In this document: positions 16,337 through 23,258 of the stretch, one piece after another
Layout of the letters: every line of letters begins with the position of its first letter
How positions within the stretch are numbered: position 1 is the stretch's first letter
Source: Magnetococcales bacterium
GTDB lineage: Bacteria > Pseudomonadota > Magnetococcia > Magnetococcales > JADFWU01
Direction: 5' to 3'
Assembly: GCA_015234045.1 (NCBI GenBank)
Contig: JADFWU010000026.1
Location: 1 to 40,543 of the forward strand
Length of the DNA stretch: 40,543 bases
Translations under genes and position numbers: made by a program
Notes under the pieces: generated by a model
Database searches by the model: none
What the model saw: only the letters and a program-made list of their open reading frames with translations
Told to the model about the DNA's origin: nothing

Positions 16337-16661
16337 TGACAAGCCTCCAACGTGTCTATTTCCTAAACTGGTATTCTCCGCTAAACTCAATCCATTCCAA
16401 TGATCAAACGATCAACAAAATGGTATCATCCAACTGAGGAGATCAAGATCTATATTAGTAAATATAAAGATTCAAATATTCTAATACTCCAGTATACTGA
16501 TTTAGCCAGGCAATACCAGGATCTATAAGCACTTATTCCATCCAGATTGACACCGGACACACGCAAAATTATCGGTGTATCGGAAAGAAGGTAGAAATAA
16601 TCCATAGCCTTCTGTTTTTCAAGGATTGAACACAGCTGACAACGACCGAGGGGAGAGCACA
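16337..16661. other. Divergent intergenic region between gapR and the coiled-coil gene
   Basis: A 325-base gap that is AT-rich between about 16440 and 16600. It must hold promoters for both neighbours. One weak candidate on the plus strand is listed separately. No gene, RNA family or repeat array was recognised. Confidence 0.5.
16471..16498 (+). promoter_or_regulatory. Weak promoter candidate for the coiled-coil gene
   Basis: TTCAAA at 16471-16476 and TATACT at 16493-16498 are separated by 16 bases. The -10 matches five of six positions and the -35 four of six. The start codon is 163 bases downstream, so the leader would be long. Confidence 0.3.
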
Positions 16662-18356
16662 GTGGCCACATCTGAAGAAAAAACAATCACCCAACTCAAT
16701 CGGATTTTATCGCTACTGTCTGCCATTCCCGGCAAAAGCAGCGAAGGTTTTTCCAATATTACCGAGCATATGGGTAATTTTTCCGGCAGTTTTGCCACGG
16801 CCTCTACCCGCGCAAGTTCCATTCAGGAACGCATAAAGGCAGACGGTGAATTGGGTCTGACACCACTCAAGTCCGATCTTCGCAAGGTCTATCGGGAAAT
16901 CAACGGTATTTTCAAAGCAATGGAAGGTATTGTTGATACAATGAGTCACTTTAATGAACACATGATCCACATGGTTGATTGGAGTATGACCATTGAACAA
17001 GGCATGTTCCTACCGCCCACCGTTGACCAGATTAAGGCCACCAGTGGTGAACGGCTGGAAATTCAAACCATGGGTGCGGTGATTGATAGTCTGATTCAAC
17101 AGGCGCGTCCTTTGATTCAGGATGTGATTCAATCCAGTCAATACGCCAGCGATGGTGTTAACCAACTGTCTCGCCGAATTTTAGCGGATTTGGACTCCTC
17201 TCTTCACGGCATGGGTATTCTACGTGAAAACAGCAACCGTACCCTGCGTCGTCTTGGTAGTTCGGTAAAGAGTTTCAGTAAATCATGCGGTACGATTGAT
17301 GGGCGCTCTGGCAAAGTAACCAATGTGGTGTTCGAAATGGTTCAGGCCATGCAGTTTGATGACATCACTGCCCAGCGTGTGTCTCATGCAGTGACCACGA
17401 TCGAGAAAATCATCGAGAAAGTGGACGACGGTCTGAATGACGATGACCGCCGCTGGGTCTCCATTGCAGCGCACATCACTTCCCATCAGATGACAGAAAC
17501 GGTAAATGATCTGCTCAACGCCATTGAAAACGCCAACGGTCAAATGTTGCGTATTGAAGATCTAGCCACCGAACAGGTAGAAGATATCGGCACAATTCGC
17601 ACCACGTCCATGACATTCCGTCAGGATACTGCGGATATCTCCTATCACATGCAGGCACTCAGTAAGCTTGGTGTGTTTAGTGAATCATTGTCAGATGAAG
17701 TCCTCTCAACGCTCTCCAATGCGGAAAACGCGGTCTTTCAATCCAAGCGTGCCTTGAATATGCTTACGGTCATCGCGGCCAGGCTTGATCATCTTGCCTC
17801 TTCTTTGAAGACACAGGGTAGTGATCGGCTGGAAATCCTGACCCGCTCTATTATTTCACTAGCCACTACCATTAAACGGGAAGGTCCAGATCGGGTAAAT
17901 GATCTGAACAATGCCGCTTCTCGTCTTCAGGCGATTTCATTGGCTTTTTCTGATAAAGCAACACCACGTTTGGTACGCACCAACAGCTTGTTGCGTCGCG
18001 CACCATTGTCTACCAAACAGTTGGAAACCAATAACAGTGATTTAATGGGCGAAATGAATGCCTCTTTGGCTGATGCTCAGGCCACTGCCATTCAATTGTC
18101 ATTGCTCATGGCCGAGCTATCTTTCCATATGGATATCAAAGAGACTGTTAATAAAGCTAACAAAGGACTTCGCACTGTACTGCATGATATTGGTGGCGCA
18201 GAAACCTTGGAGGGTGATCTATTCGCTATGGCGGAAGAGTTTGAAGATTTAGCCAGCATGTACACCATGGATTCCGAACGCCGCGTTCATAATGCTGCTT
18301 TGGATGGCGAAGATACGGATACCGGTGATGATGGTGGAGATATTGAACTGTTCTAA
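16662..18356 (+). CDS. Cytoplasmic coiled-coil protein with CheZ/MCP-like FDDITxQ motif
   Basis: A 564-residue, all-helical protein with no signal peptide, no membrane span and no HAMP or MCP hairpin-tip motif. Near residues 223-250 it carries VFEMVQAMQFDDITAQRVSH. This resembles the F-(Q/D)-D-(I/L)-T-x-Q segment of CheZ and of several chemotaxis-linked coiled-coil proteins. The C-terminus is a very acidic tail (DGEDTDTGDDGGDIELF). GAGGGGAG seven bases before the GTG at 16662 decides the start; a TTG at 16626 is less likely. A terminator follows, so it is a single gene. A chemotaxis-related phosphatase or scaffold is possible, but the motif alone is weak evidence. I do not recognise the family. 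Confidence 0.75.
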   Translation: MATSEEKTITQLNRILSLLSAIPGKSSEGFSNITEHMGNFSGSFATASTRASSIQERIKADGELGLTPLKSDLRKVYREINGIFKAMEGIVDTMSHFNEHMIHMVDWSMTIEQGMFLPPTVDQIKATSGERLEIQTMGAVIDSLIQQARPLIQDVIQSSQYASDGVNQLSRRILADLDSSLHGMGILRENSNRTLRRLGSSVKSFSKSCGTIDGRSGKVTNVVFEMVQAMQFDDITAQRVSHAVTTIEKIIEKVDDGLNDDDRRWVSIAAHITSHQMTETVNDLLNAIENANGQMLRIEDLATEQVEDIGTIRTTSMTFRQDTADISYHMQALSKLGVFSESLSDEVLSTLSNAENAVFQSKRALNMLTVIAARLDHLASSLKTQGSDRLEILTRSIISLATTIKREGPDRVNDLNNAASRLQAISLAFSDKATPRLVRTNSLLRRAPLSTKQLETNNSDLMGEMNASLADAQATAIQLSLLMAELSFHMDIKETVNKANKGLRTVLHDIGGAETLEGDLFAMAEEFEDLASMYTMDSERRVHNAALDGEDTDTGDDGGDIELF

Positions 18357-20507: not shown

Positions 20508-20546
20508 AAAAAAAAGCGAACCAATGATGCATTTGGTTCGCTTTTT
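20508..20546 (-). terminator. Terminator of the winged-helix/AAA+ operon
   Basis: AAAAAGCGAACCA (20511-20523) pairs with 20534-20546 around a ten-base loop. On the minus strand a run of T follows. It lies about 86 bases beyond the ATPase stop and before the htpG promoter. Its GCGAACC core resembles that of the terminator at 18382. Confidence 0.85.
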
Positions 20547-20631: not shown

Positions 20632-22458
20632 TTAATCTGAATCATCTATACTTTGGATTTCTTTTGCTTTTTTTCTAACAAACCGACTCAACTCATCCAT
20701 ACTGACTGTTCGATGTCTGCCATCTGTTTCACGGATAGTGATATCACCTGCTTCCACAGCGAATTGTAAAAGTGCAAGACCATACCATCGAGCCGCTCTT
20801 TTCCACGGCAGTTCGACCAATTTTCCACCAAGATCCAAGAAAGTTTCCAAAAGTCGGTTGGTTTCGGGCCAATTGGGCGGTGCTGGTATTTCTTGGCGGC
20901 CATCACGGAAGAACACCACCGGAATTGTGGCATGTTTGATAAGAAACCGATGAGCCGCTGTAAGAATTGCACGGATTGCTTGGTGACTATCATCAACACT
21001 GAGCAGAAACGCTTTAATCGGCGTTTGGTTGGTATCCTGTTCAATCAGGATAACGCGGTCACCACCTTCATCCATCCAATGAAGTTGTTTTTCTTCCACT
21101 TGAGAGCTGAGTACCAGCATCAATGCACGCTGCATCTGCTCCAGGTTTGGCGGGTAGAGATCAGGGCTGTTGTAAACTGTCTGAAATCTATGATTAAATG
21201 ATTGGTTTAAAACTGAAAATATTGGATCTTCCTGCTGAATATCTTCACTGGTTCGAGAACCTCTGTTTTTCAATCGTTGATTGGCTTGTATGATTACCTG
21301 ACGTGGGCTTTTACGAATCCACGCCCCCTCTTCCAACAGATTTTCCAGCTGTTGACCGGTTTTTTCCAACCAAAGAGCACCGAGTTCTCGGTCCAGCCGA
21401 GCCTGTATCAGTGATTCTGCTTGAGGGCGTGTGCATCCTCGCAAGGAAAAAGCATTGCTTTCCAAACGGGTAGAGACACGACTATCGAGTTTTTCTGCTA
21501 GATATTCTCGCCAGTGGCTACCACGAATAAAGGCCAATGGCACCACCGAGGATACCTCATCGACCAATAAGGTAATGATTCTGGCAAAGGCATCTATTTG
21601 GCCTTGTCCATCGAGATTTTCCAAGCAATCAAAACAGATTACTAGAGGAAAACCAAACCGGCCCATAAGATAGCCAACAGAACGTAGAATTGTTCTAGCT
21701 TCTGACTCTATATCTTCTGAATCATAATGTTTTCTGTTTGGTACCGACATCTTTTTGCGGTATCTTTTTTCAGGATCTGCGCCCATAAGCCAATCCCGGG
21801 CTGCGATTCTCAGACCGGGTTCACCTTGGCAAAAGTGGAACAGTACATTGAGCGTATCCGCAGAAAGAGAGGCTTCGTCTTTACGAATATATTGTGTAGT
21901 ACGTTGTTGGATCTGTTTTCTGTGCGTGGGCGTGAGTTGTTCAAGAATGGCCAGATAGTGTTGAGGTTCTGTAATGATTCTTTGGATTAATTTATTATTT
22001 TTTATGCTTTTCCCTGGACGAAAGAAGCGCTTAAGCATGGCACCGGTCATTTCGGCAACGAGCATATCCAGGATGGATCGACCATTAAACCCGGAGTCAC
22101 TACGGCTGAGATCACCGATGATCTCTTTCAATAGATGCCGATAGGGATAGCGTTTCCCTTCAACAGGATGAACATAGGAAAAGAACCAGCGTCCCAAGGG
22201 ATCTTGATGACGTTGACGCAACAGCCGCCCAATCAAATGGGTTTTACCGCTCCCAGCTTCACCGAGCACCAGACCAGCCACATGAGCGGACGGATCACGG
22301 CTCACGGTATCAATCATCTCTTTAATCCCGAGATAGACCGGTTGATGAATTTCCGCCACATCGGCAACAGGCTTATCTTCCCAGGGATTACCGGCACTTG
22401 CAGACAGAAATGGATTCGTCACATTAGCTAATTCGGTGTCAATATCGGTCATGGTCAC
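20632..22458 (-). CDS. ORC/Cdc6-like AAA+ ATPase with unassigned C-terminal domain
   Basis: A 608-residue P-loop protein. Walker A is GEAGSGKTH at residues 66-74, and Walker B is PLVICFDCLENLD at 271-283 with D277 and E280. A sensor-1-like strand (PLAFIRGSHW, 307-316) and a candidate arginine-finger region (SRVSTRLE, 326-333) follow. A helix near 383-397 (KSPRQVIIQANQRL) resembles the sensor-2 region of ORC/Cdc6 and DnaA-type ATPases. Between the Walker motifs lies an unusual helical insert of about 200 residues. The last 170 residues form a separate alpha/beta domain I cannot name. The ATG overlaps the upstream winged-helix-like gene by four bases (ATGA), so the two are translationally coupled. 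The function is unknown; defence, DNA partitioning and replication control are all possible. Confidence 0.85.
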   Translation of the reverse strand: MTMTDIDTELANVTNPFLSASAGNPWEDKPVADVAEIHQPVYLGIKEMIDTVSRDPSAHVAGLVLGEAGSGKTHLIGRLLRQRHQDPLGRWFFSYVHPVEGKRYPYRHLLKEIIGDLSRSDSGFNGRSILDMLVAEMTGAMLKRFFRPGKSIKNNKLIQRIITEPQHYLAILEQLTPTHRKQIQQRTTQYIRKDEASLSADTLNVLFHFCQGEPGLRIAARDWLMGADPEKRYRKKMSVPNRKHYDSEDIESEARTILRSVGYLMGRFGFPLVICFDCLENLDGQGQIDAFARIITLLVDEVSSVVPLAFIRGSHWREYLAEKLDSRVSTRLESNAFSLRGCTRPQAESLIQARLDRELGALWLEKTGQQLENLLEEGAWIRKSPRQVIIQANQRLKNRGSRTSEDIQQEDPIFSVLNQSFNHRFQTVYNSPDLYPPNLEQMQRALMLVLSSQVEEKQLHWMDEGGDRVILIEQDTNQTPIKAFLLSVDDSHQAIRAILTAAHRFLIKHATIPVVFFRDGRQEIPAPPNWPETNRLLETFLDLGGKLVELPWKRAARWYGLALLQFAVEAGDITIRETDGRHRTVSMDELSRFVRKKAKEIQSIDDSD

Positions 22459-23258
22459 GCCTCACCCCACCACGTCATCGTGACGTAGAGACTGCCATTA
22501 TGATCTCTAAACGATCCAGCCACTTCATCAGGTGTCAGGAAGGAGGGATCGCCGCCATGGATCTCTATGAAATCCATTTCCAATAGTTTAAGCATTGTCT
22601 TATCAAAGCGTTTAGATTCCCATCCCAGATCTTCGCGCACACGGTGGATTCTTATAAATCCTTGGCCATGGCCCATTTTTTCACAGACCTTACGGAACGC
22701 TTGGATATCTGCACCTAAGTTACTACTTTGCGGACTTTTTCTAGGTATTGGCTGTGATTTTACTGATTTTTCATCAGATAACCATTCATCGGTTGCAGAG
22801 TGAGACGCAGGCTTAGGCCCTACTCTCAGATTTAGACCATAATCTGTTGAGAGATGGGTGATAACTTCGGCTTTTGCCATAAGTTCGTTCAGGATTTCAA
22901 TGGCTTCCATTTTTTTTAAAGGTAGGTGTTGGACCAGCTGACGCGGAGACAGGCCGGTTGGTTTGTTTTGCAGTTTTGCCAGGAGAAACCGTTTTAGCGG
23001 TTGATTACGCGCCAGGTAGGTTTTTCCGGCATAGCCGGTACGTAGAGTGAACTGATTATTTCTATCAAGTATTTTTCTTAGAGATACTGCCAGTTTGGAC
23101 ACGGCCATTGTTTTGTTGATACTGGCGGCATCCATCACTTTTTTTGGCAACTGCTTGACTTCAGCCATGGAGAGGTAGTCACGTCCATGGCGGTTCATGC
23201 GTTGGTTTATTGCTTCGAATATAGCTATATTTATCGATCCAGACGATTGATTTTTCAT
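22455..23258 (-). CDS. Probable winged-helix DNA-binding partner of the AAA+ ATPase
   Basis: A 267-residue protein I do not recognise. It looks like two helical winged-helix-type regions, at about residues 1-130 and 180-260, joined by a Ser/Pro/Lys-rich linker (about 150-182). The first contains KTYLARNQPLKRFLLAKLQN then GLSPRQLVQHLPLKKMEAI. The second contains RIHRVREDLGWESKRFDKTM, a likely recognition helix. It is basic overall. AGGA lies ten bases before the ATG at 23258. Its last codons overlap the ATPase start. A DNA-binding adaptor for the ATPase is the natural inference. The assignment as winged helix is by pattern only. Confidence 0.75.
   Translation of the reverse strand: MKNQSSGSINIAIFEAINQRMNRHGRDYLSMAEVKQLPKKVMDAASINKTMAVSKLAVSLRKILDRNNQFTLRTGYAGKTYLARNQPLKRFLLAKLQNKPTGLSPRQLVQHLPLKKMEAIEILNELMAKAEVITHLSTDYGLNLRVGPKPASHSATDEWLSDEKSVKSQPIPRKSPQSSNLGADIQAFRKVCEKMGHGQGFIRIHRVREDLGWESKRFDKTMLKLLEMDFIEIHGGDPSFLTPDEVAGSFRDHNGSLYVTMTWWGEA

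What the first reader, a model, noticed from the sequence alone, without database searches (positions are those of the whole stretch)
20632..23258. Translationally coupled winged-helix-like protein and ORC/Cdc6-like AAA+ ATPase
Two unrecognised genes overlap by four bases, have their own terminator and sit between the housekeeping genes htpG and trxA. The ATPase has intact Walker A (GEAGSGKTH) and Walker B (FDCLE), a roughly 200-residue helical insert between them, and an unnamed alpha/beta C-terminal domain of about 170 residues. The partner looks like two winged-helix regions with a disordered linker. A DNA-binding adaptor plus an AAA+ switch with an extra domain is a layout seen in defence, partition and initiation systems. 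This is the strongest candidate here for an undescribed system.
Basis: partly seen in the sequence, partly recalled or inferred. Interest (0 to 1): 0.7.

Follow-up and report, generated by a model that had tools for sequence, protein, structure and literature searches.

The report
Stripped-down ORC-like ATPase and DNA-binding partner
Two linked bacterial genes encode a DNA-reading protein and a ring-type ATPase that in other bacteria come with a DNA-cutting motor; here the cutting part is missing but the pair is still kept, which suggests it has a job of its own.

Summary
Window 22455-23258(-) (gene B, 267 aa) and 20632-22458(-) (gene A, 608 aa) are adjacent and conserved. A is an ORC/Cdc6-fold AAA+ ATPase with a helical insert and an extra alpha/beta C-terminal domain. 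B is three (not two) winged helices. B lies directly upstream of A in 60 of 62 loci from several phyla, so the pairing is real.

It is not undescribed. In many relatives a third gene follows: a Cas4-like PD-(D/E)XK nuclease, often fused to an FtsK translocase. That layout matches the ORC/CDC6-coupled 'HerA/FtsK capture systems' predicted to be anti-invader by Rakesh, Aravind and Krishnan (2024, PMC10853773). I found no experimental study.

The window copy is a reduced form. No nuclease or dedicated translocase was found in its genome, A lacks the C-terminal winged helix that every nuclease-linked relative has, and it sits among housekeeping genes. Pair-only genes in related Magnetococcales are under purifying selection, so the reduced form is probably functional. 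Best guess: B marks DNA sites and A forms an ATP-dependent complex there, acting with host enzymes in trans. Nothing here shows whether its target is invading or chromosomal DNA.

The parts
20632..22458 (-). gene A: ORC/Cdc6-fold AAA+ ATPase, 608 aa, GTG start
22455..23258 (-). gene B: triple winged-helix protein, 267 aa, ATG start
22455..22458 (-). 4-base overlap of the B stop and the A start (depends on the GTG start of A)
   Evidence: overlaps usual in relatives
22237..22263 (-). Walker A region of A, residues 66-74
   Evidence: invariant residues in 34 homologues
21619..21639 (-). Walker B region of A (ICFDCLE, residues 274-280)
   Evidence: D277 invariant in 34 homologues
21655..22170 (-). 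mostly helical insert of A between Walker A and Walker B, about residues 97-268
   Evidence: model secondary structure
20650..21225 (-). C-terminal region of A, about residues 412-603, with an alpha/beta domain; no conserved nuclease residues; probably the inactive REase-like domain named in PMC10853773
   Evidence: fold assignment not proven
23004..23258 (-). B winged helix 1, residues 1-85
   Evidence: model secondary structure
22809..23003 (-). B winged helix 2, residues 86-150 (MarR/ArsR-like fold match, Z 10 over 64 residues)
22719..22808 (-). B linker, residues 151-180, low model confidence
22470..22718 (-). B winged helix 3, residues 181-263, the best conserved part of B
20511..20546 (-). 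terminator-like hairpin after A
   Evidence: pattern match only

Best explanation
The pair is the DNA-targeting core of an ORC/CDC6-type HerA/FtsK 'capture' system that has lost its dedicated nuclease-translocase. B, with three winged helices, recognises a DNA sequence or structure. A, an ORC/Cdc6-type ATPase, is recruited by B and assembles in an ATP-dependent way on the DNA; its degenerate C-terminal domain is a docking surface. In the complete systems this complex would hand DNA to the Cas4-like nuclease and FtsK motor of the third gene. Here it must act with an unlinked host partner (for example the chromosomal FtsK or a housekeeping nuclease) or as a DNA-bound switch. Shown here: folds, pairing, homology to the three-gene operons, apparent absence of the third gene, purifying selection on pair-only relatives. 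Inferred: DNA binding, A-B contact, assembly on DNA, partner in trans, the target.
For: A fits ORC/Cdc6 and TnsC structures (Z 16.1 to 1fnn, 15.2 to TnsC, 14.0 to BrxC). B is a tandem winged-helix protein. B lies directly upstream of A, usually overlapping, in 60 of 62 loci. In Desulfobacterota/Myxococcota, Synergistota and a cyanobacterial plasmid a PD-(D/E)XK nuclease gene follows, often fused to FtsK, with all catalytic and four-cysteine positions conserved. In three loci the FtsK motor is fused to A itself. The layout matches a published class. No third gene was found in the window genome or in 13 Magnetococcales with pair sequences (positive control). In pair-only Magnetococcales dN/dS is 0.16-0.24 for close pairs, and Walker motifs are intact.
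Against: No DNA binding, complex or assembly is shown. The genome is 93% complete in 117 contigs, so the third gene could be missed. Selection was measured in related Magnetococcales, not on the window copy, which has no close relative here (at most 33% identity). The restriction-enzyme fold of the C-terminal domain rests on one unlocalised Foldseek hit and the literature; profile comparison gave nothing.
Confidence: 0.5

Rival explanations
1. Anti-invader defence: the pair still restricts phage or plasmid DNA, through an unlinked nuclease or by blocking invader replication.
For: The published class is predicted to be anti-invader (PMC10853773). The ATPase fold is shared with the defence ATPase BrxC. 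Occurrence is patchy over phyla: 16 of 48 genomes of the order with some match, 40 of 121 Synergistota, 9 of 297 genomes of the phylum of L035. A and B evolve much faster than HtpG.
Against: No nuclease in the genome, no defence neighbours, no homologue in 50,697 phage records and none found in viral contigs. In one Magnetococcales genus 10 of 11 genomes carry it, and its divergence tracks HtpG (Mantel p 0.013), which suggests long residence.
Confidence: 0.3
2. Domesticated chromosome-maintenance factor: the pair works with the cell's own FtsK or repair nucleases in chromosome segregation or DNA-end processing.
For: In gut Synergistaceae the clade whose nuclease lost the FtsK motor (25 rows, one clade, 100/100) has B-A-nuclease at one chromosomal place: pilM downstream in 19 of 20 loci with enough flank, cellular-type ftsK further downstream in 13 of 14, rsmH upstream in 15 of 22. 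None of six other Synergistota loci, five with a fused motor, shows pilM or rsmH nearby. Long residence in a Magnetococcales genus.
Against: Magnetococcales pairs have no conserved neighbours. Shared operons are not shared function. Synergistota lacking the pair were not checked for the same locus.
Confidence: 0.25
3. Decaying remnant of a deleted three-gene system with no present function.
For: The nuclease gene and the C-terminal winged helix of A are lost together: 32 of 32 nuclease-linked A proteins have the extension, 16 of 19 pair-only ones lack it, as one deletion across the A/third-gene junction would give.
Against: Both frames are intact, Walker motifs kept, dN/dS well below 1 in pair-only Magnetococcales, and the pair-only state is scattered on the tree.
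Confidence: 0.1

Closest known systems
ORC/CDC6-coupled HerA/FtsK capture systems (Rakesh, Aravind, Krishnan 2024, PMC10853773)
   Same: ORC/CDC6 ATPase with an extra domain after the AAA+ core; fast-evolving multi-winged-helix partner; relatives carry an active nuclease and an FtsK motor with the FtsK-alpha domain.
   Different: No nuclease, no dedicated FtsK and no C-terminal winged helix on the ATPase in the window copy; not in a mobile neighbourhood.
SspB-SspC of the SspABCD phosphorothioate system
   Same: According to PMC10853773, SspB is a triple winged-helix protein and SspC an ORC/Cdc6 ATPase: the same kind of pairing.
   Different: No PADLOC match of A or B to SspB or SspC; no sulfur-modification genes beside the pair.
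DndFGH / SspFGH (DptFGH)
   Same: The paper calls DndG triple winged-helix; the FtsK motor of the relatives' third gene best matches the SspH (DndH-type) profile.
   Different: A and B match no DndF/G/H profile; the nuclease here is Cas4-like rather than the DndH type.
BREX BrxC
   Same: ORC/Cdc6-type ATPase fold, Z 14.0 over 290 residues.
   Different: No BrxC profile match for the window protein; no PglX, PglZ or other BREX genes.
TnsC (Tn7-family transposon ATPase)
   Same: Same AAA+ fold class, Z 15.2 over 242 residues.
   Different: No transposase or target-selector genes nearby; extra helical insert and C-terminal domain.

Membership tests
ORC/CDC6-coupled HerA/FtsK capture system (PMC10853773) | ORC/CDC6-family AAA+ ATPase | tested here: met
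   model Z 16.1 to Cdc6 1fnn, best of the list; Walker residues invariant
ORC/CDC6-coupled HerA/FtsK capture system (PMC10853773) | inactive restriction-enzyme-like domain after the AAA+ core | tested here: inconclusive
   alpha/beta domain present, no conserved catalytic residues; EcoT38I hit unlocalised; hhalign negative
ORC/CDC6-coupled HerA/FtsK capture system (PMC10853773) | C-terminal winged helix on the ATPase | tested here: not met
   window A ends 12 residues after residue 596; nuclease-linked relatives have 79-115 more residues
ORC/CDC6-coupled HerA/FtsK capture system (PMC10853773) | active nuclease in the operon | tested here: not met
   none beside the pair or elsewhere in the genome (control); present in relatives
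ORC/CDC6-coupled HerA/FtsK capture system (PMC10853773) | HerA/FtsK translocase in the operon | tested here: not met
   only a second FtsK-like ORF in a Dnd-like locus and a long-frame FtsK, taken to be the chromosomal one
ORC/CDC6-coupled HerA/FtsK capture system (PMC10853773) | fast-evolving protein with 2-4 winged helices (in a subset) | tested here: met
   B has three and only 19-33% identity to relatives
ORC/CDC6-coupled HerA/FtsK capture system (PMC10853773) | anti-invader activity | not testable with these tools
   needs experiments; only predicted in the paper
SspBC | profile match to SspB and SspC | tested here: not met
   no PADLOC match at E up to 1
DndFGH | profile match to DndF, DndG or DndH | tested here: not met
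   no PADLOC match for A or B at E up to 1
BREX | BrxC profile match and BREX gene set | tested here: not met
   no match for A; no BREX hits among ten neighbours
ORC/Cdc6 replication initiators | sequence match to known initiators | tested here: not met
   no PDB sequence match for A alone and only weak P-loop matches for the profile; shared fold only

The most novel reading that the evidence does not exclude
Reduced or locus-fixed members of this supposed anti-invader family have been domesticated: the B-A core acts as a chromosomal DNA-loading complex working with the cell's own FtsK or nucleases.
Probability: 0.25. Interest if true: 0.7.

Novelty: new variant of a known kind. Interest (0 to 1): 0.45.

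Why it matters
It separates the DNA-targeting core of a predicted, untested defence family from its nuclease-motor. A pair that is kept without a cutter, and a nuclease-bearing version fixed beside cell-division genes in gut Synergistaceae, question the assumption that these systems are always mobile defences. The pair is small enough to test biochemically.

Tried and rejected
Viral contigs with A, A1, A2 and the third gene: no relatives confirmed; phage records: none. PHROGs, NCBIfam and PADLOC gave no real match for A or B. The second FtsK-like ORF of the window genome was considered as the missing partner and rejected: it lies in a DndC/DndD-type locus and such ORFs occur in many genomes without the pair. 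Independent acquisition of the window copy was suggested by the tree, but one clade with the other Magnetococcales is not rejected (AU p 0.21). An empty-site test failed because relatives do not keep trxA beside htpG. The joint loss of the nuclease and the C-terminal winged helix is striking in counts but has only 3 independent contrasts. Profile comparison of the C-terminal domain with the nuclease domain: nothing. Other restriction-enzyme families were not compared. FokI, SspB and DndG do not appear in the fold-match lists of B; those lists are partial, so this says little.

Full report
What is there. The A start at GTG gives a 4-base overlap with the B stop; an ATG two codons on would leave a 2-base gap, so the exact overlap is not certain, though overlaps are usual in relatives. 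A terminator-like hairpin follows A. The surroundings are housekeeping genes: holA, htpG, trxA-type thioredoxin, lpxB, lpxI, lpxA, rseP. None of ten neighbours is a real PADLOC match.

Protein A. Pfam sees only a weak AAA domain, and PADLOC, NCBIfam, PHROGs and PDB sequences give no real match. AlphaFold on 34 homologues gives a good model (pLDDT 86.9, pTM 0.86). VIA-align puts Cdc6 (1fnn, Z 16.1), TnsC (15.2) and BrxC (14.0) on top. The stretch between Walker A and Walker B is mostly helical. The C-terminal domain has strands and helices in an order compatible with a restriction-enzyme-like fold, but no catalytic residue is conserved. EcoT38I is a Foldseek hit of the whole chain, without localisation, and profile comparison with the Cas4-like domain found nothing.

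Protein B. The model (pLDDT 88.6, pTM 0.58) has three winged helices and a floppy linker between the second and third. Only the second was well covered by the fold comparison. The third is the most conserved.

Relatives. In the order of the window genome (relatives are titled Magnetococcales) 16 of 48 genomes have some A match, two of them weak or divergent, and the partner search agrees. A scan of 84,980 species genomes gave full-length relatives in Desulfobacterota, Myxococcota-labelled bins, SAR324, Synergistota and a partial one in Planctomycetes. B lies directly upstream in 60 of 62 loci (one contig is counted twice). Of the two others, L146 has an unmatched 310-aa ORF in the B position and L038 has no candidate. 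More distant A-like proteins in cyanobacteria, Thiotrichales, Sulfurovum and Planctomycetes are fused to exonuclease or HerA/FtsK-type domains.

The third gene. In L035, L037 and many Synergistota the next gene encodes a PD-(D/E)XK nuclease, with FtsK-alpha and FtsK motor domains in some. The nuclease keeps the invariant C15, H46, D172, E187-x-K189, Q202, Y206 and C277/C280/C286, the Cas4/AddB-type iron-sulfur nuclease signature (the name of the signature is from general knowledge). A plasmid of Pseudanabaena has the same three-gene order. In L036, L147 and L136 the FtsK motor is fused to A. The motor best matches the SspH (DndH-type) profile.

The reduced form. A model of the nuclease domain finds nothing in the window genome or in 13 other genomes with pair sequences, while it finds its targets in control genomes. 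The window A also ends before the C-terminal winged helix. Among classifiable loci all 32 nuclease-linked A proteins have that extension and 16 of 19 pair-only ones lack it; this rests on only three independent contrasts. The pair-only state needs about nine changes on the tree, at least six on well-supported branches. In pair-only Magnetococcales, close pairs have dN/dS of 0.16-0.24 for both genes and intact Walker motifs. In one genus 10 of 11 genomes have the pair and A divergence follows HtpG divergence (Spearman 0.52, Mantel p 0.013), although gene neighbourhoods differ. The window copy itself is divergent (at most 33% identity to any other), so selection on it could not be measured; nor is separate acquisition shown.

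Synergistota. The clade whose nuclease stands alone has the operon at one chromosomal place, with pilM downstream in 19 of 20 loci, a cellular-type ftsK downstream in 13 of 14 and rsmH upstream in 15 of 22 with enough flank. Six other Synergistota loci, five of them with a fused motor, show neither pilM nor rsmH. I read this as a hint that the nuclease now relies on the cell's FtsK; this is inference from gene order.

What is known. Rakesh, Aravind and Krishnan (PMC10853773, section 22) describe ORC/CDC6 ATPases with an inactive REase domain, an active REase, a HerA/FtsK motor (some with FtsK-alpha) and, in a subset, a fast-evolving protein with 2-4 winged helices related to DndG, SspB and FokI. 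They propose an anti-invader role. A follow-up on BREX describes a related capture system (PMC12839542). Literature searches found no experiment; the library holds open-licence papers only. The match to the three-gene relatives is close. The window pair fails three tested features, so I file it as a reduced variant and not as a full member.

Mechanism. Most likely B selects DNA and A assembles on it with ATP, as ORC, TnsC or, as proposed, SspB-SspC do. What it then does without its own cutter is open: host partner in trans, blocking, or signalling. Defence and chromosome maintenance are both possible, and neither is excluded by evidence here.

Noticed in passing
G000:C21, locus L088:4163-11096: The window genome carries a Dnd/Pbe-type locus: DndC, DndD/PbeC, a 500-aa FtsK-like protein with an SspH-type motor, an AAA ATPase and one more ORF.
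   Followed up: partly
window 16626-18356 (+): A 576-aa protein without any significant Pfam or NCBIfam match lies beside htpG here, and homologues lie beside htpG in several other Magnetococcales.
   Followed up: no
L057, L059, L121, L123, L125, L127, L128, L130, L131, L133, L137 and others: In gut Synergistaceae the B-A-nuclease operon is fixed between rsmH-ftsI and pilM-mltG-ftsK, and the nuclease ORF often runs on into a pseudopilin-like sequence.
   Followed up: partly
L069, L074, L075, L032, L033: Distant A-like proteins of cyanobacteria, Thiotrichales and Sulfurovum carry an N-terminal RNase T-type exonuclease-like domain (for L069; the rest by sequence resemblance).
   Followed up: no
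L032:8082-9496: On Synechococcus plasmid p11801_1 the distant A relative is followed by genes annotated as TIR-domain and macro-domain proteins.
   Followed up: no
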